A DNA stretch of 12,188 bases from an uncultured Angelakisella sp. (lineage in GTDB: Bacteria; Bacillota; Clostridia; Oscillospirales; Ruminococcaceae), in contig CAJFUT010000098.1 in the NCBI GenBank assembly GCA_904420255.1, forward strand, positions 1-12,188. The letters are read 5' to 3'. Each line of letters starts with the position of its first letter. Position 1 is the stretch's first letter. Positions 425 through 12,188 of the stretch are shown here, piece after piece. The translations under genes and the position numbers were made by a program. The notes under the pieces are model-generated. The model ran no database searches. It was not told the origin of the DNA and saw only the letters and a program-made list of their open reading frames with translations.

Positions 425-2305
425 TCAGGGCCGGGTGCTGCCGATATAGTTCACCGGGTCCTGGGCCACGCCGCCGATCTTGATTTCGAAATGGCAGTGG
501 TTGCCGCTGGCGTTGCCGGTGCGCCCCACCAGGGCGATCAGGTCCCCCTGCTCCACATAGTCCCCCACCGACACCAGCACCTGGCTGCAGTGGGCGTAGC
601 GGGTAACCACACCGTCCCCGTGCTGGATGGTGACGCTTTTGCCGTAGGGCCACACCGAAACGTCGCTGGCGGCGGTCACCACCCCGGTGGCGGCAGCGTA
701 GATCTCGGTGCCGGCGTCGGCGGCGATATCCACCGCGTTGTGGCCGTAGTAGCCGTAAAAGCCGCAGGTGATGTAGCCGCCGTTCACCGGCCAGAGGAAG
801 CTGCCGTCCCAGGAAAGCCCCTCCAGGAGGGACTCCTCCTCGGATTTCCCCTCATCCTCCCCGGATTCTTCCCCGGCGTCCTCCGCCGGTTCCTCCTGGG
901 GCTCCTCCGCCGCTTCCCCGCCGCCATTCTCCCCTGCGGCCGCCTCCGCCTGGGCCGCTTCCTGGGCCGCCTGTTCCGCCGCCTCCCGGGCGGCCTGCTC
1001 GGCGGCCTGGCGGGCCGCTTCCTCAGCGGCTTCGGCCTCGGCCTCCGCCTGGGCCACCGCCGCCTGGACCTCGTCGGAAAGCACCACCTGCATCTGAAGG
1101 GGCTCCTGGTCCTGGGCGGGGACGTCGGTGGGGTTTGGCTGGGGAATCGCCTCAGGCTGGGAGGCCTCCCCGCTCCACAGCGCGGGGACCTCCCGGCTGC
1201 CGGCGCTTGCCACCACCGGGAGCTCCTCCCGGGAGAAAAGCTCCTGGAACACCGGGCCGGGGTTGGCCGCCGAGGAGCAGACCACCCCCACCGCCGCCAC
1301 CACCAGGCAGAGGGCGGCGGAAACCGCCCGGTCCAGGGGGGTGGCCCCGGCGGCGGCCCGCAGGAGGGAGAGGCGGCGCTTCAGCTCCTTCTTATCCATG
1401 GCCAGGAAGGCCCCCTGGGAGGCCGCCGGGCTTTTTTCCCGGCCCTCCCCGCTGCCCTGGGCCACGTCCAACAGCATCCTGCCGTACTTCCGCCTGCCCG
1501 AGGGGCTCATCCCCCGGGTGGTGCGCCGGTCGCAGCAGAGCTCGCAGCTCCGGTCCAGGTCCCGGAGCATCAGACGGGTCAGGGGGTTGAACCAATGGAT
1601 GGCCGCCACCACCAGGGCCGCCGCCTTGTACCACAGGTCCCGGCAGCGGTAGTGGGTCAGCTCGTGGCGGAGCATCATCTCCAGCTGGGAGTCGCTGTAG
1701 TCCTCCCGGGGGATCACCACCTTGGCCTTCCAGAGGCCCAGGAGCAGGGGGCTTTCCACACCGGGGCAGACCACCAGCTCCACCCGCCCCTGGGGGATCC
1801 CCGCCTCCGCCAGGGCCTCCTGGAACTTCTGATGGGCCCGCCCCTCGGGGCTGCAGGGGGCCGCGCATTTCTTCAGGGAGGCCCCCAGGCTGCGGTTATC
1901 CACCAGGCGCACCGCCAGGGTGAAAACCATCCCCAGGGCCCAGGCCCAGGCCAGCACCGGCATGGCCTGCTCCAGCCAGGCCGCCGCCAGCTGGAAAAAG
2001 CCGGGGGCCGCCGCCTCCGCCGCCCCCTGGACGGCCTGGGACGCCGCCGCCGAAGCCGGCGCCCCGGCGGAAGCGGCGCCGGAGGAAACCCCGGCGGAAG
2101 CCGCCTCCTTCCCCGCCCCGGCGGGCAGGGAGAAGGCAAAGGGCACCAGGTAAAGCACCAGGGGCAGGGTCCAGACGTAATAGTTCCAGCCGGTGCCCAG
2201 CCGGTCCTTCCACACCGCCTTGGCCCCCAGCACCAGCAGCGTCGCGGCGCTGCCGGCCAGGCTCAGGGAAACCACCAGGCGGAACAATCCTTCCAGCAAA
2301 GCCAT
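425..2305 (-). CDS. M56 membrane metalloprotease fused to an extracellular M23 peptidase
   Basis: A 626-residue protein. Hydrophobic segments lie at about 7-29, 43-60, 111-133 and 326-345. Between the third and fourth is the M56 (BlaR1/MecR1-type) zinc protease core: HELTH at 214-218 with a downstream SCELCCD (253-259) supplying a probable third ligand. After the fourth segment comes an Ala/Glu-rich, probably helical linker (about 410-490), then an M23/LytM domain (about 503-622) with complete zinc motifs: HNAVD (His522, Asp526) and HCH (His603, His605). By BlaR1 topology the M23 domain lies outside the cell and the M56 site inside. In BlaR1 the outer domain binds beta-lactam and the M56 site then triggers removal of BlaI; here a peptidoglycan-cutting or peptidoglycan-binding domain takes the sensor place. 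The gene starts 3 bases after the BlaI-type gene stop, so the two are co-transcribed. The domain calls are strong; the sensing role is inferred. Confidence 0.9.
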   Translation of the reverse strand: MALLEGLFRLVVSLSLAGSAATLLVLGAKAVWKDRLGTGWNYYVWTLPLVLYLVPFAFSLPAGAGKEAASAGVSSGAASAGAPASAAASQAVQGAAEAAAPGFFQLAAAWLEQAMPVLAWAWALGMVFTLAVRLVDNRSLGASLKKCAAPCSPEGRAHQKFQEALAEAGIPQGRVELVVCPGVESPLLLGLWKAKVVIPREDYSDSQLEMMLRHELTHYRCRDLWYKAAALVVAAIHWFNPLTRLMLRDLDRSCELCCDRRTTRGMSPSGRRKYGRMLLDVAQGSGEGREKSPAASQGAFLAMDKKELKRRLSLLRAAAGATPLDRAVSAALCLVVAAVGVVCSSAANPGPVFQELFSREELPVVASAGSREVPALWSGEASQPEAIPQPNPTDVPAQDQEPLQMQVVLSDEVQAAVAQAEAEAEAAEEAARQAAEQAAREAAEQAAQEAAQAEAAAGENGGGEAAEEPQEEPAEDAGEESGEDEGKSEEESLLEGLSWDGSFLWPVNGGYITCGFYGYYGHNAVDIAADAGTEIYAAATGVVTAASDVSVWPYGKSVTIQHGDGVVTRYAHCSQVLVSVGDYVEQGDLIALVGRTGNASGNHCHFEIKIGGVAQDPVNYIGSTRP

Positions 2306-2308
2306 GGG

Positions 2309-2668
2309 TCATTTCCCCCCTTCAAACCAGCGGCGGAGCTCCTCCAGCTCCTGATCCTCGATCTCCCCCGGCGCGCAGAGGGCCGCGAACAGGCTGCGGT
2401 AGGAGCCGCCGTGGATCTGCTCCACAAAGCTCCGGGTTTCCTGGCGGCGGTACTCCTCCCGGCTGAAGGCGGCCTGGTAGAGGTTTTGCCGCCCGGCCTT
2501 CTTGACGGTGAGGCAGCCCTTTTCCTCCAGGCGGGACAAAAAGGTAAGGAGGGTGGTGGCCTTCCAGCCCGTATCGGCCAGGCGCTCCATGAGCCAGGCC
2601 GTGGTGACGGGGCCGCCCCCCTCCCAGATGAGATTCATGATCTTCATTTCCGAATCGGATATTTTCAT
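2309..2668 (-). CDS. BlaI/MecI/CopY family transcriptional repressor
   Basis: A 119-residue protein, the usual family length. It opens MKISDSEMKIMNLIWEGG, the first helix of the BlaI winged-helix domain, followed by the recognition helix around WKATTLLTFLSRLEEKG (about 35-51) and the wing with KAGRQNLYQA (about 57-66). The C-terminal half (about 72-119) is the dimerisation part, also the place where family members are inactivated by proteolysis. The ATG at 2668 is preceded by GGGAGGAAG at good spacing. It is first in an operon with the M56/M23 gene. Two dyads in its promoter match what BlaI-type dimers bind, so it most likely represses its own operon until the M56 protease is activated. No beta-lactamase or copper gene is adjacent, so the signal is probably wall damage or turnover rather than copper; that last point is inference. 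Confidence 0.92.
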   Translation of the reverse strand: MKISDSEMKIMNLIWEGGGPVTTAWLMERLADTGWKATTLLTFLSRLEEKGCLTVKKAGRQNLYQAAFSREEYRRQETRSFVEQIHGGSYRSLFAALCAPGEIEDQELEELRRWFEGGK

Positions 2669-5234: not shown

Positions 5235-6101
5235 TCAGAGCTGCCGGAAATACCCCTGGACAAAATCCCGGAACAGGGCGGCGGCCGGGGAAAGGTACCC
5301 CTCCCGCCAGGAGAGGTTGATGTACCGCCGGCAGCGGGGGAAGGAAATGGGCACCAGGGCGATGCTGCCGGTTTTCATCCCGCTCCAGGTGACCCGGGGG
5401 ATGAAGGAGATGCCGATGCCCGCCCGGATCAGCTCCCGCACCGTTTCCGGGCTGTCGCTTTCCAGGATCACCGTGGGCTCGAAGCCCGCCATCCGGCAGT
5501 ACAGGTCGGTGATGGTGCGCAGGCTTTTCCCCCGCTGCAGGCAGATGAATTCCTCCCCCGCCACCTCCCGCAGGTCGATGCTCTCCTTCCGGGCCAGGGG
5601 GTTGGCTTCGGGCAGCGCCAGGAGGATCTCCTCCTCGATGAGGGTGGCCTCGTTCTCCCCGGTGCAGGGCTGGATGGAGGAAAAGAGGGAGAGGTCGCAG
5701 CTGCTGTGCCCCCGGGCGCCCAGGTCCTCCTGGACGATGCGCAGGCGGATGGAGGGGTGCTCCCGCTTGAAGCGCATCACCAGCTGGGGCAGCAGCTTGG
5801 AGGCGGCGTAAAGGGAGATGGTGACGCTGCTGCTGTTCCGTTCCAGGGCGTCGTCCAGCTCCCGGCGGATGTCCTCCACCTCCTGAAGGACCCGCCCGGC
5901 GTGGCGCAGCACCATCTCCCCGTATTCATTGAGGCGGATGTTCTTCCCGGACCGCTGGAACAGCTCCACCCCCAGCTCCGCCTCCAGGCCGGCGATGGTG
6001 CGGCTCAGGGAGGGCTGGGCCACATGGAGCTCCTCCGCCGCCCGGGTGATGTGCTGCAGCTCCGCCGCCTTCTTGAAATAGGCCAGGGTGTGGATGTCCA
6101 T
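5235..6101 (-). CDS. LysR family regulator, divergent from the malonate-type operon
   Basis: A 288-residue protein. The ATG at 6101 is preferred to one 45 bases upstream because AAAGGATG precedes it and the product then begins MDIHTLAYFKKAAELQHITR, the normal LysR start. The helix-turn-helix is about 18-38 (ITRAAEELHVAQPSLSRTIA), the linker helix extends to about 85, and the effector domain contains ESDSPETVRELIRAGIGISFIP (about 220-241). It is transcribed away from the mdcA-like operon from a promoter that interlocks with that of the operon, the classic layout for a LysR activator and its target. Classical malonate decarboxylase operons are also controlled by a LysR protein (MdcR), so a malonate- or malonyl-CoA-responsive activator is a reasonable guess. 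This is inference from position; the effector cannot be read from the sequence. Confidence 0.92.
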   Translation of the reverse strand: MDIHTLAYFKKAAELQHITRAAEELHVAQPSLSRTIAGLEAELGVELFQRSGKNIRLNEYGEMVLRHAGRVLQEVEDIRRELDDALERNSSSVTISLYAASKLLPQLVMRFKREHPSIRLRIVQEDLGARGHSSCDLSLFSSIQPCTGENEATLIEEEILLALPEANPLARKESIDLREVAGEEFICLQRGKSLRTITDLYCRMAGFEPTVILESDSPETVRELIRAGIGISFIPRVTWSGMKTGSIALVPISFPRCRRYINLSWREGYLSPAAALFRDFVQGYFRQL

Positions 6102-6146
6102 TTCCGCCCATCCTTTCATAACAAAAAAGATATGTATATGTAACAA

Positions 6147-6175
6147 AGTATATATTGGACGCTATCAAAAGTCAA
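6147..6175 (-). promoter_or_regulatory. Promoter of the divergent LysR gene
   Basis: On the minus strand TTGACT (6175-6170) and TATACT (6152-6147) are 17 bases apart. Transcription would start near 6140, about 40 bases before the LysR start codon. It overlaps the operon promoter on the other strand. Confidence 0.75.
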
Positions 6176-6184
6176 TGCTATGAT
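6155..6184 (+). promoter_or_regulatory. Promoter of the mdcA-like operon
   Basis: TTGGAC (6155-6160) and TATGAT (6179-6184) with an 18-base spacer, giving a start near 6191 and a 47-base leader. The spacer is longer than ideal, as expected for an activator-dependent promoter. The A/T-rich imperfect dyad at about 6133-6156 lies where LysR proteins bind relative to such a start. Confidence 0.7.
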
Positions 6185-6237
6185 GGACTTAATACTCAGC
6201 GGCGTAAGCAGGCTGCGGGAAAGGAAGGGAATTCTTT

Positions 6238-7878
6238 ATGATTTGGGACAAGGAGCGGCGCTCGAAGCAGGAGCGGATGGCCGGGGTGAAGCAGTACACC
6301 GACGGCGGCAAGGTGATCGAAACGGAATCCATCGTGCCCTTTTTGGAGGGCGTGATCCACCCCGGCGACCGGGTGGTGCTGGAGGGCTGCAATCAGAAGC
6401 AGGCCGCCTTCCTGGCCGGCGCCATGACCCGGCTGGACCCGGCCAAGGTCCACGGCCTCAATATGATCATCCCCTCCATCTCCCGGGACGAGCACCTGGA
6501 CCTGTTTGAGAAGGGGATCGCCGAGGAGATCAACTTCGCCTTCGCCGGGGTGCAGAGCCTGCGGCTGGCCCAGATGCTGGCGGAGGAAAAGCTGCGCATC
6601 GGCGCCATCCACACCTACCTGGAGCTCTACGGCCGGCTGTATGTGGACCTGACCCCCAACATCTGCCTCATCGCCGCCGACAAGGCGGACCGCAGCGGCA
6701 ACCTTTACACCGGCTACAACACCGAGGAAACCCCCATGCTCACCGAGGCGGCCGCCTTCAAAAGCGGCATCGTCATCGCCCAGGTCAACAGCATCGTGGA
6801 GGAAAGCGAGCTGCCCCGGGTGGATATCCCCGGCGGCTGGGTGGACTATATCGTCAAGGCCTCCGAGCCCTACCCCATGGAGCCCCTGTTCACCCGGGAC
6901 CCGGCCAAGATCCAGGACGCCCACATCCTCATGGGCATGATGGTCATTAAGGGCATCTACGCCAAGCACGGCGTCACCAGCCTCAACCACGGCATCGGCT
7001 ATAACGGCGCCGCCATTGAGCTGCTGCTGCCCACCTTCGGCAACTCCCTGGGCCTCAAGGGCAAAATCTGCACCCACTGGGTGCTGAACCCCCACCCCAC
7101 CCTGATCCCCGCCATCGAGGACGGCTGGGTGAAGCAGGTGTGCGCCTTCGGCGGCGAGCTGGGGATGGACCGGTACACCGCCGCCCGGCCCGACATCTTC
7201 TTCACCGGCCCCGACGGCTCCCTGCGCTCCAACCGGGCCGCGGCCCAGGTGGCCGGCCTCTACGGCATGGACCTTTTCCTGGGGGGCACCCTCCAGATGG
7301 ACTATGTGGGCAACAGCTCCACCGTCACCAGCGGCCGCCTCAGCGGCTACGGCGGCGCCCCCAACATGGGCAACAGCACCGGCGGCCGCCGCCACACCAC
7401 CAAGGCCTGGCTGGATATGGCCCCCCTGGGCGGCTCCATGGCCTCCGGGCGCAAGCTGGTGGTGCAGATGATGAAGAGCCGCAGCAAATTCGGCCCCGGC
7501 TTCGTGCCGGTGCTGGACGCGGTGGAGATCGGCAAAAAGGCCGGCATGGCCGCCGCCCCGGTGATGATGTACGGCGAGGACGTCACCCATGTGGTCACCG
7601 AGCAGGGCATCGCCTACCTCTACCAGGCCCAGAACGCCGAGGAGCGCACCCGCCTCCTGGGCGCCGTGGCCCAGGGGACCCCCATCGGGGACCTGGTGAG
7701 CCAGGCCCAGATCGCCCAGCTGCGGGCCGCCGGCAAGGTGGCCTATCCCGAGGACCTGGCCATCTCCCCCGACGCCGCCAACAAGGACCTGCTGGCCGCC
7801 AAGTCCCTGGAGGAGATCGCTGAAATCTCCGGCGGGCTGTACCAGGTGCCGGACCGGTTCAAGAAAAAACCGGAATAA
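6238..7878 (+). CDS. mdcA: MdcA-type malonate CoA/ACP transferase (malonate decarboxylase alpha subunit family)
   Basis: A 546-residue protein, close to the usual 550 of MdcA. Family stretches I recognise include EGCNQKQAAFLAGAM (49-63), MIIPSISRDEHLDLFEKGIA (76-95), LIAADKADRSGNLYTG (144-159), SLNHGIGYNGAAIELLLPT (248-266), FGGELGMDRYTAARPD (304-319), SGYGGAPNMGN (369-379) and YGEDVTHVVTEQGIAYLY (445-462). MdcA swaps acetyl for malonyl on the prosthetic group of the malonate decarboxylase ACP; it is related to acyl-CoA transferases. The Glu in GGELGM is a candidate for the acyl-CoA-transferase catalytic Glu. No ACP (MdcC/MadE) gene is here, so transfer to free CoA (acetyl-CoA + malonate to malonyl-CoA + acetate) is my inference. 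The ATG at 6238 follows AAGGAAGG at 9 bases. It is first in the operon, 27 bases before the thioesterase. A different short dicarboxylate as substrate cannot be excluded. Confidence 0.88.
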   Translation: MIWDKERRSKQERMAGVKQYTDGGKVIETESIVPFLEGVIHPGDRVVLEGCNQKQAAFLAGAMTRLDPAKVHGLNMIIPSISRDEHLDLFEKGIAEEINFAFAGVQSLRLAQMLAEEKLRIGAIHTYLELYGRLYVDLTPNICLIAADKADRSGNLYTGYNTEETPMLTEAAAFKSGIVIAQVNSIVEESELPRVDIPGGWVDYIVKASEPYPMEPLFTRDPAKIQDAHILMGMMVIKGIYAKHGVTSLNHGIGYNGAAIELLLPTFGNSLGLKGKICTHWVLNPHPTLIPAIEDGWVKQVCAFGGELGMDRYTAARPDIFFTGPDGSLRSNRAAAQVAGLYGMDLFLGGTLQMDYVGNSSTVTSGRLSGYGGAPNMGNSTGGRRHTTKAWLDMAPLGGSMASGRKLVVQMMKSRSKFGPGFVPVLDAVEIGKKAGMAAAPVMMYGEDVTHVVTEQGIAYLYQAQNAEERTRLLGAVAQGTPIGDLVSQAQIAQLRAAGKVAYPEDLAISPDAANKDLLAAKSLEEIAEISGGLYQVPDRFKKKPE

Positions 7879-7905
7879 CCCGGGCCGGCGGAAGGAGGAG
7901 CGACC

Positions 7906-8325
7906 ATGAACATTCAACCCATTGTCACACACCATTTTGTGAAAAGCGAGGACCTGAACCACCACGGGACCCTCTTCGCCGGCAGGACGGCGGAGTGGTT
8001 TGTGGAGGCGGGACTCATGTCGGCGGCGGTCTACCTGCCGCCGGAGAACATCGTCTGCGTCAAAATCCACGGGATGAATTTCCGCCGCCCCATCCCCCTG
8101 GGGGCGGTGGTGGAGCTGGTGAGCCGGGCCGTCCTGGCCGGGAGGACCAGCGTGGTATCCCACATCCGGCTGACCCTCCAGGGGGAGGAGGTGCTGGACG
8201 GCTTCATCACCTTTGTCAACGTGGGGAAGGACGGCCGTCCGGCGCCCCACGGCCTCACCCTGGAGGCCTCCACCCCGGAGGAACAGGCCCTCCAGGAGCG
8301 GGCCGGGAGCCTGCCCCGGGACTGA
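7906..8325 (+). CDS. Hotdog-fold acyl-CoA thioesterase family protein
   Basis: A 139-residue single hotdog domain. LNHHGTLFAGRTAEWFVEAG (17-36) is the family's N-terminal signature: the loop, then the long central helix that packs in the beta sheet. GMNFRRPIPLGAVVELVSRAV (56-76) and GRTSVVSHIRLT (79-90) are the following strands. In YciA/BFIT-type enzymes an Asp or Glu sits in the helix about twelve residues after the first Gly of GTLF; here that position is Val33, with Glu34 next to it and Glu30 before it, so the catalytic acid is uncertain. A strong GGAAGGAGGAG ribosome binding site precedes the ATG. Its place between the CoA transferase and the carboxyltransferase suggests it handles a CoA ester of the same pathway, by hydrolysis of malonyl-, acetyl- or a mis-loaded acyl-CoA. 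The fold is sure, substrate and activity are not. Confidence 0.85.
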   Translation: MNIQPIVTHHFVKSEDLNHHGTLFAGRTAEWFVEAGLMSAAVYLPPENIVCVKIHGMNFRRPIPLGAVVELVSRAVLAGRTSVVSHIRLTLQGEEVLDGFITFVNVGKDGRPAPHGLTLEASTPEEQALQERAGSLPRD

Positions 8326-8336
8326 CCCGGGACGGC

Positions 8337-8352
8337 GGCGCCCCCAGGCGCC
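8337..8352 (+). other. Small hairpin between thioesterase and carboxyltransferase genes
   Basis: GGCGCC (8337-8342), four loop bases, GGCGCC (8347-8352). No T-run follows, so it is more likely an mRNA stability or processing element than a terminator. Confidence 0.4.
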
Positions 8353-8394
8353 AAAGACCTTTATGAGAAAACCATTCAGATGGGAGGAATTCCA

Positions 8395-9942
<1,548 letters not shown>

Positions 9943-9956
9943 GGGAGGGCCGGACC

Positions 9957-10274
9957 ATGTTTGAGAACTTCCCCAGCGGACTGCTGGCCCTCCTGATCCT
10001 GGCTGCGGCCCTGGCCCTTGTGGTGGCGCTGCAGCGGCGGGGCGCCCGGGCCCAGGCCCCGGAAGAGGCCGCCCCGGCTCCCGCCCATCCCGCGGCCTCG
10101 TCCCAGCCCGCGCCCCAGGCTGCCCCGGACGCCGACCTGGCGGTTCTGGCGGCGGCGGCCATCGCCGCCTATCTGGGAACCAGCGCCGACCAGCTGGTGG
10201 TCCGGAGCATCCGCCGCATCGCCCCAAGCGAAACCCCCTGGATCCAGGCCGGCCGCACCGGCTCCATCCGATAA
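9957..10274 (+). CDS. OadG-like small membrane subunit of a Na+-translocating decarboxylase
   Basis: A 105-residue protein: one N-terminal membrane helix (about 8-26), a basic stop QRRGAR (26-31), an Ala/Pro-rich flexible linker (about 32-57), and a C-terminal conserved part DADLAVLAAAAIAAYLGTSA (58-77) followed by VVRSIRRI and PWIQAGR. This order is typical of the gamma/delta subunits (OadG, MmdD, GcdC-neighbouring small subunit) that hold the carboxyltransferase to the membrane pump. The ATG at 9957 is 14 bases after the carboxyltransferase stop, with AAGGGAGGG between, so translation is coupled. Its presence is the best evidence that the system is a membrane decarboxylase and not a soluble acyl-CoA carboxylase. 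The pump subunit it should contact is not encoded here. Confidence 0.88.
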   Translation: MFENFPSGLLALLILAAALALVVALQRRGARAQAPEEAAPAPAHPAASSQPAPQAAPDADLAVLAAAAIAAYLGTSADQLVVRSIRRIAPSETPWIQAGRTGSIR

Positions 10275-10281
10275 ACAAAAG

Positions 10282-10305
10282 GAGGCCCCGTCCATCGCGG
10301 GCCTC
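10282..10305 (+). other. Intercistronic hairpin covering a start-less Shine-Dalgarno
   Basis: GAGGCCC (10282-10288) pairs with GGGCCTC (10299-10305). It takes in the end of AAAAGGAGG (10277-10285), a strong ribosome binding sequence with no ATG, GTG or TTG at the right distance; ATC at 10294 opens a frame of seven codons ending at 10317. It lies in the 56 bases between the OadG-like and biotin carrier genes and may tune their ratio. No T-run follows. Confidence 0.45.
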
Positions 10306-10330
10306 GATCAACAGTGAGGTGTAAACAACC

Positions 10331-10753
10331 ATGAGCATCAAGAGATTCCGCATCGTTCTGGACGGCGTCCCCCATGAGGTGGAGGTGGAGGAGCTGGGAA
10401 GCGCCCCCTCCTCCCCTGCGGCTCCTGCGGCCGCACCGGCAGCGGCGCCGGCCCCTGCCCCCGCTCCCGCACCGGCGGCCCCTGCCCCCGCTCCCGCACC
10501 GGCGGCCCCCGCGCCTGCCGCGCCGGCTTCCTCCGGCGGCGGCGATGCGGTGACCGCCCCCATGCCGGGCACCATCGTCAACGTGCCCGTCGCCCCCGGC
10601 CAGGCGGTGAAGCAGGGCCAGGTGCTGGCGGTGCTGGAAGCCATGAAGATGGAGAACGAGATCGTCGCCCCCCGGGACGGGGTTGTGGCGTCGGTCGCGG
10701 CGAAAAAAGGCGACTCGGTGGCCTCCGGCGATCTGCTCCTTACCCTTCAGTAA
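10331..10753 (+). CDS. Biotin carboxyl carrier protein of the decarboxylase
   Basis: A 140-residue protein: an N-terminal beta segment ([20 protein letters not shown], 1-20), an Ala/Pro linker (about 25-68), and the biotinyl domain (about 71-140). EAMKMENE (103-110) is the biotinylation site with Lys106 as the attachment residue, and [10 protein letters not shown] (76-85) is the first strand of the fold. It carries the carboxyl group from the carboxyltransferase to the membrane decarboxylase subunit; this is the MmdC/GcdC role. The linker contains a perfect 27-bp tandem duplication. The ATG at 10331 is preceded by TGAGGTG at 9 bases. It is the last gene of the operon, followed by a strong terminator. 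Length, linker and position next to the OadG-like gene fit the gamma subunit of Na+-pumping decarboxylases. Confidence 0.93.
10451..10504 (+). repeat. 27-bp perfect tandem duplication in the carrier protein linker
   Basis: Bases 10451-10477 and 10478-10504 are identical; a further degraded partial copy follows. The unit keeps the reading frame and encodes nine Ala/Pro residues, so copy number would change the length of the swinging arm without disturbing the biotinyl domain. Confidence 0.9.
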
Positions 10754-10780
10754 TCTCCTGGCTGTCCCTGTCCCCGGCAG

Positions 10781-10814
10781 GCCCTGGGCCATCCCGGAGC
10801 CGCGGCCCCAGGGC
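10781..10814 (+). other. GC-rich stem-loop after the carrier protein gene
   Basis: GCCCTGGGCC (10781-10790) pairs with GGCCCCAGGGC (10804-10814) with one bulged base. It has no T-run and precedes the true terminator; it may protect the mRNA 3' end. Confidence 0.45.
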
Positions 10815-10832
10815 TATGGGCGAAAAAAGCAA

Positions 10833-10885
10833 GACCCCGGGAATCCCTCCGCGTCCGGCGGCGGGGTTCCCGGGGCCTTTTTCTT
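10833..10885. terminator. Strong bidirectional intrinsic terminator
   Basis: CCCCGGGAA (10835-10843) pairs perfectly with TTCCCGGGG (10867-10875), and pairing continues inward with one mismatch to a small loop near 10855. CCTTTTT follows on the plus strand, and on the minus strand GTCTTGCTTTTTT follows. It ends the decarboxylase operon from the left and the ZIP gene from the right. Confidence 0.9.
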
Positions 10886-10902
10886 CGGATTTTTGGGGAC
10901 GC

Positions 10903-11706
10903 TCAGCCCAGGGCCACATCCAGCACCATCATCACCAGGAAGCCTGCCAGCACCCCCATGGTGCCGCTGTTGCTGTGCTCCCCCAAATGGGCCTCGGGGA
11001 TCAGCTCCTCCACCACCACATAGATCATGGCCCCGGCGGCAAAGGCCAGGAACCAGGGCATGAGGGGGGCCACCTGCCCTGCCACCAGCACGGCGATCAC
11101 CCCGCCGATGGGCTCCACCGCGCCGCTGCCCGCACCCAGCAGGAAGCACCGGCGGCGGCTCATCCCCTCCTGGCGCAGGGGGAGGCTCACCGCCGCCCCC
11201 TCGGGGAAGTTCTGGAGCCCCATCCCCAGGGCCAGGGCCAGGGCGCCGGCCAGGGTCACCGCCCCCTCCTCCCCCTGGGCGGCCATGGCGAAGGAAAGGC
11301 CCACCGCCATCCCCTCGGGGATGTTGTGGAGGGTCACCGCCAGCACCAGCAGAACGTTTTTGGGCAGGCGGCTGGGCAGGCCCTCCGCCTCCCGGCTGCC
11401 GGGGTGGAGGTGGGGCAGGAAGGTATCCAGCCCCAGCAGGAACAGGGCCCCCAGCAGGAACCCGCCCGCCGCCGGGAGCCATCCCGGCTGGCCCATCTCC
11501 TGGGCCATCTCGATGGCGGGGTTCAGGAGGCTCCAGACGCTGGCGGCGATCATCACCCCGGCGGCGAAGCCCAGGAACACCCGCTGGATGGCGGGATTGA
11601 TCTCGTCCCTGAAGAAAAACACCATGGCGCTCCCCGCCGCCGTGGCCAAAAAGGTGAAGCCGGTGCCCAGCAGGCAGAGGAGCAGCGGAGAATGAGCGAG
11701 GTCCAT
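10903..11706 (-). CDS. ZIP family divalent metal transporter (ZupT/GufA-like)
   Basis: A 267-residue membrane protein, the usual size for bacterial ZIP carriers. It has about eight hydrophobic segments and the binuclear metal site motifs: HNIPEG (127-132) in the fourth and QNFPEG (165-170) in the fifth membrane helix, with VEPIGG (197-202) and VVEELIPEAH (221-230) further on. A short His-containing loop LPHLHPG (97-103) lies between the third and fourth helices. ZIP proteins bring Zn2+, Fe2+ or Mn2+ into the cytoplasm; which metal cannot be told. Gln165 replaces the His often seen first in the second motif, as is common in the GufA branch. The ATG at 11706 is chosen because AAAGGA precedes it at about 8 bases and the protein then begins with the first helix; 25 residues added by an upstream ATG look unrelated. 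It stands alone, tail to tail with the decarboxylase operon. Confidence 0.92.
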   Translation of the reverse strand: MDLAHSPLLLCLLGTGFTFLATAAGSAMVFFFRDEINPAIQRVFLGFAAGVMIAASVWSLLNPAIEMAQEMGQPGWLPAAGGFLLGALFLLGLDTFLPHLHPGSREAEGLPSRLPKNVLLVLAVTLHNIPEGMAVGLSFAMAAQGEEGAVTLAGALALALGMGLQNFPEGAAVSLPLRQEGMSRRRCFLLGAGSGAVEPIGGVIAVLVAGQVAPLMPWFLAFAAGAMIYVVVEELIPEAHLGEHSNSGTMGVLAGFLVMMVLDVALG

Positions 11707-11952: not shown

Positions 11953-12016
11953 ATTACTTCGGTCGGGCCGGAAGTCCGGGCTTCACTTTCTCTACCGAGA
12001 GAAAGTGACAAAGAGC
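11953..12016. repeat. 64-bp hairpin repeat, copy 1
   Basis: It differs from copy 2 at 6 of 64 positions, 119 bases away. It holds a perfect 11-bp stem TCACTTTCTCT (11983-11993) with its complement (11998-12008) around a 4-base loop, then ACAAAGAGC. Confidence 0.8.
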
Positions 12017-12071
12017 CGGGGGAAACCCCTGGACCCCTTTTTTCTACTCCGCCGGGTTTTTTCTCAATCAG

Positions 12072-12135
12072 ATTACTCCGGTCGGACCGTAGGTCCGGGC
12101 ATCACTTTCTCTGCCGAGAGAAAGTGACAAAGAGC
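12072..12135. repeat. 64-bp hairpin repeat, copy 2
   Basis: It has the same layout as copy 1: stem TCACTTTCTCT (12102-12112) with its complement (12117-12127). It also has a second small hairpin, CGGACC/GGTCCG (12084-12089 and 12093-12098). The changed bases include the loop, while the long stem is unchanged. Confidence 0.8.
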
Positions 12136-12188
12136 GGCCGGGGAGCCCCCCGGGCCCCCGTGCAGGGCGACAGCCTTCCAGCGGGGGA

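What the first reader, a model, noticed from the sequence alone, without database searches (positions are those of the whole stretch)
6238..10753. Possible ACP-free malonate decarboxylation system: MdcA-type transferase joined to an MmdA-type Na+-pump decarboxylase
The operon puts an MdcA-family transferase with carboxyltransferase, OadG-like and biotin carrier subunits of the methylmalonyl-CoA decarboxylase type. The known malonate decarboxylases (biotin-free Mdc of Klebsiella/Pseudomonas, biotin-dependent Mad of Malonomonas) both use a special ACP with a phosphoribosyl-dephospho-CoA group and a split carboxyltransferase or decarboxylase pair. Here the ACP, its cofactor-making and charging genes and the split subunits are all absent, and a one-piece CoA-ester carboxyltransferase is present. 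I infer a cycle on free CoA: acetyl-CoA + malonate gives malonyl-CoA + acetate, then malonyl-CoA gives acetyl-CoA + CO2 with Na+ export. A hotdog thioesterase and a divergent LysR complete a compact module.
Basis: partly seen in the sequence, partly recalled or inferred. Interest (0 to 1): 0.75.

Follow-up and report, generated by a model that had tools for sequence, protein, structure and literature searches.

The report
ACP-free, CoA-based malonate decarboxylation operon
Some anaerobic bacteria appear to break down malonate with a shortened enzyme set that uses ordinary coenzyme A instead of the special carrier protein of the classical malonate decarboxylases, in most cases linked to a sodium pump.

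Summary
The operon is real: divergent LysR, mdcA, 4HBT thioesterase, MmdA-like carboxyltransferase, weak OadG-like protein, biotin carrier. It belongs to a conserved gene set. Of 80 mdcA loci fetched, 14 carry mdcA plus the one-piece carboxyltransferase and no separate mdcB/C/D/E/G/H; the other 66 have mdcC and mdcD. Complete Hungatella hathewayi DSM 13479 has the operon but no MdcC/CitD-type ACP, MdcG, CitG/MdcB or methylmalonyl-CoA mutase. These MdcAs form one clade: ten published active-site positions kept, four conserved ACP-interface positions lost. The core mechanism, CoA transfer to malonate then biotin-dependent malonyl-CoA decarboxylation, is well supported but not biochemically shown.

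Two corrections. The Na+-pumping beta subunit, present in all 14 relatives whose sequence reaches that point, is missing from the window operon, which ends at a strong terminator after the biotin carrier; the MAG's only detected beta belongs to an oxaloacetate-decarboxylase operon. Na+ export here therefore needs a borrowed beta or another carboxyl acceptor. The thioesterase is not core (2 of 17 loci). A new variant of a known kind.

The parts
5235..6098 (-). divergent LysR-type regulator
   Evidence: PF03466 + PF00126; a relative lies divergently upstream of mdcA in 9 of the 14 ACP-free loci (recounted) and in L099
6147..6184 (.). divergent promoter-like sites between LysR and mdcA
   Evidence: two sigma-70-like matches, one per strand; 2 found in 5900-11000 against a shuffle mean of 0.5; consensus only
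6238..7878 (+). mdcA: proposed acetyl-CoA:malonate CoA-transferase
   Evidence: PF16957, TIGR01110 above cut-off; aligns to 5vit/6mpr MdcA; active-site positions kept, ACP-interface positions changed
7906..8325 (+). 4HBT hotdog thioesterase, accessory
   Evidence: PF03061; found between mdcA and the carboxyltransferase only in the window and L099, i.e. 2 of 17 loci
8380..9942 (+). MmdA/PCC-beta-type one-piece carboxyltransferase, proposed malonyl-CoA:biotin carrier carboxyltransferase
   Evidence: PF01039; TIGR01117 878.1 bits, under its cut-off; follows mdcA in the 14 ACP-free loci and in L095 and L099
9957..10274 (+). short OadG-like subunit (one membrane helix by eye)
   Evidence: TIGR01195 20.3 bits, sub-threshold; protein in the same place in L006 is PF04277
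10331..10753 (+). biotin carboxyl carrier protein, Ala/Pro linker, EAMKMEN biotinylation motif
   Evidence: PF00364 77.9 bits; MKM at residue 105
10831..10879 (+). intrinsic terminator that closes the operon where relatives have oadB
   Evidence: hairpin -40.1 kcal/mol, z -3.60, followed by a T run; terminator-like hits

Best explanation
An ACP-free malonate decarboxylase on free coenzyme A. MdcA moves CoA from acetyl-CoA to malonate, giving malonyl-CoA and acetate. The MmdA-like carboxyltransferase moves the carboxyl group of malonyl-CoA to the biotin carrier and regenerates acetyl-CoA. In the family as a whole the dedicated OAD-beta membrane subunit, held by the OadG-like subunit, decarboxylates carboxybiotin and exports Na+. 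Net: malonate to acetate + CO2 without ATP, with acetyl-CoA as a catalytic carrier. In this window the dedicated beta gene is gone from the operon; the carrier most likely hands its carboxyl group to the beta subunit of the genome's oxaloacetate decarboxylase. Shown by sequence: gene set, clade, kept catalytic and lost ACP-contact residues, missing ACP/cofactor/methylmalonyl-CoA mutase genes. Inferred: every reaction, the Na+ coupling, and the borrowing of beta.
For: 14 of 80 mdcA loci have mdcA+carboxyltransferase and no separate mdcB/C/D/E/G/H (the only mdcD matches lie inside the carboxyltransferase); 66 of 80 have mdcC and mdcD. Two unnamed relatives of the window host repeat the gene set (G281, G283). 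Own MAG: no PF06857. Complete H. hathewayi: no PF06857, PF10620, PF01874 or PF01642. MdcG in 0 of 17 operon genomes, 2 of 2 positive-control genomes. All 7 PF06857 hits in the 14 genomes lie beside CitF (6) or methylaspartate ammonia-lyase (1), so I take them for citrate/citramalate lyase carriers. One MdcA clade, 17 rows, support 98. Active-site positions 10 of 10 kept; conserved ACP-interface positions lost 4 of 4 against 35 of 385 equally conserved columns, Fisher p 9e-5, including F424, whose Ala mutant disrupted the P. aeruginosa complex (PMC5534430, sections 10 and 11 read). No methylmalonyl-CoA mutase in 16 of 17 genomes. Operon beta in 14 of 14 readable loci keeps D203, S382, N412, the Na+ residues of PMC7274780 (passages seen). 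Two small genomes (G005 behind L008, G013 behind L016) show only one OAD-beta, and its coordinates are those of the operon's.
Against: No biochemistry. The window operon has no beta subunit. The operon beta varies at R304 (R in 1 of 14) and N311 (N in 7 of 14), both essential in Salmonella OAD. Loss of F424 is not unique to ACP-free enzymes: of five Mad-type MdcAs with an ACP gene nearby (L164-L168), F is kept in 1 and E466 in 4. Two further MdcAs without ACP genes nearby (L098, L100) have no carboxyltransferase either, so ACP-lessness and this decarboxylase are not strictly linked. The carboxyltransferase scores under the curated mmdA cut-off and I built no carboxyltransferase tree, so its substrate is argued from context only. 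G281 and G283 were not searched for PF06857. MAGs are incomplete.
Confidence: 0.77

Rival explanations
1. Window-specific variant: with beta lost, the carboxyltransferase and carrier work as a transcarboxylase. The carboxyl group of malonyl-CoA is passed to pyruvate through the OadA-type subunit of the oxaloacetate decarboxylase operon, as in the propionibacterial transcarboxylase, giving oxaloacetate instead of free CO2.
For: No beta in the window operon and a terminator in its place; the MAG has an OadA-OadG-like-carrier-OadB operon at C36/C227; the carboxyltransferase matches the transcarboxylase 12S chain 1on3 at 672.6 bits.
Against: The genome still has one OAD-beta that could serve instead; the MAG is 81% complete; none of the 14 relatives readable past the carrier gene lacks beta, and G283, with the same thioesterase insertion, has an operon-type beta.
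Confidence: 0.12
2. The carboxyltransferase/carrier set is a methylmalonyl-CoA decarboxylase of the succinate-to-propionate route and only happens to sit next to mdcA.
For: Best NCBIfam match is TIGR01117 mmdA; the MmdABCD subunit plan is the same; one operon genome, G002, does have methylmalonyl-CoA mutase.
Against: Methylmalonyl-CoA mutase (PF01642) is absent from 16 of 17 genomes with the operon, including a complete one, while the search rings in 8 of 14 control genomes; the pair mdcA-carboxyltransferase recurs in 17 loci of several families; the 10 operon carboxyltransferases scored (window plus 9) all fall below the mmdA cut-off.
Confidence: 0.05
3. A normal ACP-dependent Mdc or Mad system whose ACP and cofactor genes lie elsewhere in the genome.
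For: PF06857 proteins exist in 5 of 14 operon genomes and CitG-type proteins in 8 of 17.
Against: All 7 PF06857 hits are in citrate/citramalate lyase surroundings; MdcG absent in 17 of 17; complete H. hathewayi has none of these; ACP-contact positions are lost.
Confidence: 0.04

Closest known systems
Biotin-dependent malonate decarboxylase of Malonomonas rubra (Mad) and Mad-like loci found here (L096, L164-L167)
   Same: MdcA-type transferase, biotin carrier, OAD-beta-type Na+ subunit, malonate as substrate
   Different: Mad uses an ACP (PMC7274780 passage) and, recalled, a split carboxyltransferase; here no ACP, a one-piece carboxyltransferase and an OadG-like subunit
Biotin-independent malonate decarboxylase Mdc (Klebsiella, Pseudomonas)
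   Same: MdcA with the same active-site residues
   Different: no MdcC ACP, no MdcD/MdcE, no MdcB/G/H
Methylmalonyl-CoA decarboxylase MmdABCD Na+ pump
   Same: subunit plan: carboxyltransferase, delta subunit like OadG, biotin carrier, beta (PMC7274780 passage); CoA-ester substrate
   Different: joined to MdcA; 16 of 17 hosts lack methylmalonyl-CoA mutase; TIGR01117 below cut-off
MatA/MatB malonyl-CoA route (recalled; only the An and Kim reference was seen)
   Same: malonyl-CoA on free CoA as intermediate
   Different: MatB spends ATP and MatA is a biotin-free decarboxylase (recalled); here activation is by CoA transfer and decarboxylation is biotin-dependent (inferred)

Membership tests
Mdc (biotin-independent malonate decarboxylase) | MdcA-type transferase with conserved malonate pocket | tested here: met
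   TIGR01110 above cut-off; 10 of 10 active-site positions
Mdc (biotin-independent malonate decarboxylase) | MdcC ACP and MdcB/MdcG cofactor genes | tested here: not met
   (MAG 81% complete; H. hathewayi complete)
Mdc (biotin-independent malonate decarboxylase) | split MdcD/MdcE decarboxylase | tested here: not met
   only weak MdcD/MdcE-like matches, inside the one-piece carboxyltransferase
Mad (Malonomonas-type, biotin-dependent) | ACP-bound malonyl thioester (ACP gene) | tested here: not met
   no PF06857 in the MAG or in complete H. hathewayi
Mad (Malonomonas-type, biotin-dependent) | biotin carrier | tested here: met
   PF00364 with MKM
Decarboxylase Na+ pump (OAD/MmdABCD family) | OAD-beta membrane subunit encoded with the complex | tested here: not met
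   window: absent; relatives: present in 14 of 14 loci that reach past the carrier gene
Decarboxylase Na+ pump (OAD/MmdABCD family) | essential residues of beta | tested here: inconclusive
   Na+ residues D203, S382, N412 kept in 14 of 14 operon betas of relatives and in the MAG's OAD beta fragment; R304 kept in 1 of 14 and N311 in 7 of 14 operon betas
Methylmalonyl-CoA decarboxylase (MmdA) | carboxyltransferase over the curated mmdA score | tested here: not met
   878.1 against 998.8; nine relatives 846-890
Methylmalonyl-CoA decarboxylase (MmdA) | methylmalonyl-CoA supply in host (mutase) | tested here: not met
   PF01642 absent from own MAG and from 16 of 17 operon genomes in all
Malonate CoA-transferase activity | acetyl-CoA:malonate CoA transfer | not testable with these tools
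   needs enzyme assay

The most novel reading that the evidence does not exclude
A third class of malonate decarboxylase that dropped the ACP and its phosphoribosyl-dephospho-CoA cofactor machinery and joined an MdcA to a CoA-ester Na+-pump decarboxylase, with a sister clade in which the same MdcA feeds malonyl-CoA into an aldehyde dehydrogenase (malonate reduction), and with this window's lineage having shed its own Na+ pump subunit so that malonyl-CoA carboxyl groups are passed to the oxaloacetate decarboxylase machinery.
Probability: 0.2. Interest if true: 0.85.

Novelty: new variant of a known kind. Interest (0 to 1): 0.68.

Why it matters
Curated models name this MdcA 'malonate decarboxylase subunit alpha' (TIGR01110, equivalog) and point its partner to methylmalonyl-CoA decarboxylase, so automatic annotation can suggest two wrong pathways. 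If right, it adds a malonate route that needs no special cofactor and no ATP, would explain malonate use by anaerobic Bacillota, and shows how an ACP-dependent enzyme can become a CoA enzyme by losing its docking surface. H. hathewayi DSM 13479, a named strain with a complete genome, makes it testable.

Tried and rejected
Glutaconyl-CoA decarboxylase reading rejected: GcdA structures match the carboxyltransferase at only 92.6 and 83.6 bits against 686.8 for PCC-beta 1vrg. Methylmalonyl-CoA reading made unlikely. 'ACP elsewhere' made unlikely. Idea that the MAG's C36/C227 beta is the operon's lost beta rejected: it is 90% identical to the OAD-operon beta of G281 and 70% to the operon-type beta of G281, while operon-type betas of L004 and G283 are 97% and 91% identical to G281's. 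Substrate residue: all 16 readable operon carboxyltransferases, window included (17 loci less the truncated L012), read GGAYIGM; I place this Ile at ScPccB D422 / ScAcCCB I420 (PMC7835884 passages) from a recalled motif, not from an alignment, and 1vrg also has Ile and 1on3 Leu there, so it is only compatible with acetyl/malonyl use. Literature: searches listed no paper whose title or shown abstract describes this ACP-free operon; the library lacks most subscription journals. I recall, unverified, 1990s work on malonate breakdown through malonyl-CoA in Sporomusa malonica; one search did not list it. Papers seen: PMC5534430 passages and sections 10, 11; PMC7274780, PMC12303837 (reference list only), PMC7835884, PMC7320173 passages; all others listing only. 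No structure prediction was run.
Full report
WHAT IS THERE. The window is a whole contig (G000:C98) of a 1.98-Mb, 81%-complete MAG. MdcA passes the curated mdcA model (804.9 against 789.15 bits) and aligns nearly end to end with the solved MdcA chains 5vit and 6mpr. The next genes are a 4HBT thioesterase, a one-piece carboxyltransferase of the PCC-beta/MmdA type (878.1 bits, under the 998.8 mmdA cut-off), a short protein with a sub-threshold OadG match, and a biotin carrier with an EAMKMEN motif. A divergent LysR gene shares an intergenic region with one promoter-like site on each strand. A strong hairpin with a T run (-40.1 kcal/mol, z -3.60) follows the carrier gene.

CONSERVATION. By tblastn, 14 of 80 (L004-L017: Angelakisella, Erysipelotrichaceae, Hungatella hathewayi, Clostridiaceae, Lachnospiraceae and unplaced Bacillota/Clostridia records) have mdcA followed by the carboxyltransferase and no mdcB/C/E/G/H match, mdcD matching only inside the carboxyltransferase; 66 of 80 have mdcC and mdcD, and none of those 66 has a carboxyltransferase match above 300 bits. 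Unnamed relatives G281 and G283 add two more such loci. An OAD-beta gene follows the carrier in 12 of 14 loci (L005 and L012 are cut by contig ends before it) and in G281; in G283 carrier and beta lie on a second contig end, that beta being 91% identical to G281's operon beta. The window is the exception. Counting the window, L095 (G281) and L099 (G283), 17 loci carry the mdcA-carboxyltransferase pair.

SURVEY. MdcA is rare in the samples drawn. Family level: 11 of 297 genomes ring with PF16957; the strong ones are own, G281, G283 (ACP-free), G282 (ACP genes nearby), G261 (Mad-like: ACP, split subunit, OAD-beta), G081 and G101 (neither set; aldehyde dehydrogenase beside mdcA), and G158 (fragment next to mdcB-like pieces). 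Class level: 18 of 391 ring, only own and G627 full length; G627 is ACP type. Phylum level at E 1e-50: 6 of 398, own plus five Mad-like.

NO ACP. The MAG has no PF06857 match (E. coli control rings). Among the 14 genomes behind L004-L017, 5 have 7 PF06857 matches; six lie beside CitF and one beside methylaspartate ammonia-lyase, so I take them for citrate or citramalate lyase carriers. MdcG (PF10620) is absent from 17 of 17 operon genomes and present in 2 of 2 positive controls (Klebsiella, Clostridium magnum). CitG/MdcB (PF01874) occurs in 8 of 17, not in the window's MAG or H. hathewayi. The complete H. hathewayi genome (G007) has none of PF06857, PF10620, PF01874. G281 and G283 were not searched for PF06857.

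THE TRANSFERASE. In a quick-method tree of 85 MdcAs the 17 ACP-free rows are one side of a branch (98), and with the two aldehyde-dehydrogenase-linked MdcAs (L098, L100) a larger one (99). Residues that bind malonate or form the oxyanion holes in P. aeruginosa MdcA (PMC5534430 section 11) are the same in all 17 (Ile261 is Ile or Val in both groups). Positions the same paper mutated at the ACP interface are replaced: F424 (61 F, 3 Y, 1 H of 65 ACP-type; 0 of 17 here), E466 (63 of 65; 0 of 17, all Gln), I490 (65 of 65 Ile/Val; 17 of 17 Gly), R521 (63 of 65; 4 of 17). Among columns at least 90% class-conserved in the ACP group, 4 of 4 such sites are lost against 35 of 385 others (Fisher p 9e-5), and 0 of 10 active-site columns. 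F424A disrupted the holoenzyme in that paper; single mutants at the other three sites did not. In the best 120 of 7999 protein clusters found (65-100% identical), none has F at 424 (2 have His), E at 466 or I/V at 490, and nine active-site columns are identical in 119-120 of 120, Ile261 being Ile/Val/Leu. Against: of five Mad-type enzymes with an ACP nearby, E466 is kept in 4 and F424 in 1, so F424 alone is not diagnostic.

THE DECARBOXYLASE. Methylmalonyl-CoA mutase is absent from 16 of 17 operon genomes (only G002 has it), so methylmalonyl-CoA is an unlikely substrate. The operon betas of relatives keep the Na+ residues D203, S382, N412 in 14 of 14, but R304 in only 1 and N311 in 7 of 14, both also essential in Salmonella OAD (PMC7274780 passages). 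Neighbouring genes fit malonate: AEC-type permeases beside the operon in L006, L008, L009; an amidase downstream in L013, L015, L016, L017.

THE WINDOW'S OWN TWIST. A search with the operon-type beta finds nothing credible in the window (best E 7.4), and the MAG's only beta pieces (ends of C36 and C227) belong to an OadA-OadG-like-carrier-OadB operon; the C227 piece is 90% identical to G281's OAD-operon beta. So this genome either borrows that beta, has an unassembled one, or passes the carboxyl group on. The 4HBT gene, shared only with G283 among the 17 loci, may release surplus acyl-CoA; this is a guess.

VERDICT. An ACP-free, CoA-based malonate decarboxylation operon: a new variant made of known parts. 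The chemistry is inferred from sequence; the Na+ step in this particular genome is open.

Noticed in passing
L098:8325-11579 and L100:7685-11929: MdcA of a sister clade next to an aldehyde dehydrogenase family protein (PF00171), in L100 also a 3-hydroxyisobutyrate-dehydrogenase-like protein, without ACP or decarboxylase genes found: possibly malonate to malonyl-CoA to malonate semialdehyde to 3-hydroxypropionate.
   Followed up: partly
L016:15309-21629 and L017:8711-14999: After the malonate operon come an amidase, a CoA-ligase-fold protein (AllF-like, recalled), AllG, a PF04199 cyclase and a molybdopterin-dehydrogenase FAD subunit; this could be an oxidative pyrimidine (barbiturate) route that delivers malonate.
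   Followed up: partly
L097:651-2264 (contig of the same length as L023's): An ACP-type mdcA with an in-frame TAA.
   Followed up: no
L101:4572-6071: A short mdcA piece followed by mdcB-like pieces, looking degraded.
   Followed up: no
L137:6577-11855 (Hungatella hathewayi): A mixed cluster with an OadA-type and a distant (41%) carboxyltransferase, OadG-like, carrier and OAD-beta genes together.
   Followed up: no
window 11953-12148: Two 77-nt direct repeats, 84% identical, each holding a TCACTTTCTC...GAGAAAGTGA palindrome, next to the contig end.
   Followed up: no
window 425-2668 (-): By eye (not scanned) a BlaI-like regulator gene followed by an M56-type membrane peptidase gene whose C-terminus looks like an M23 peptidase.
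   Followed up: no
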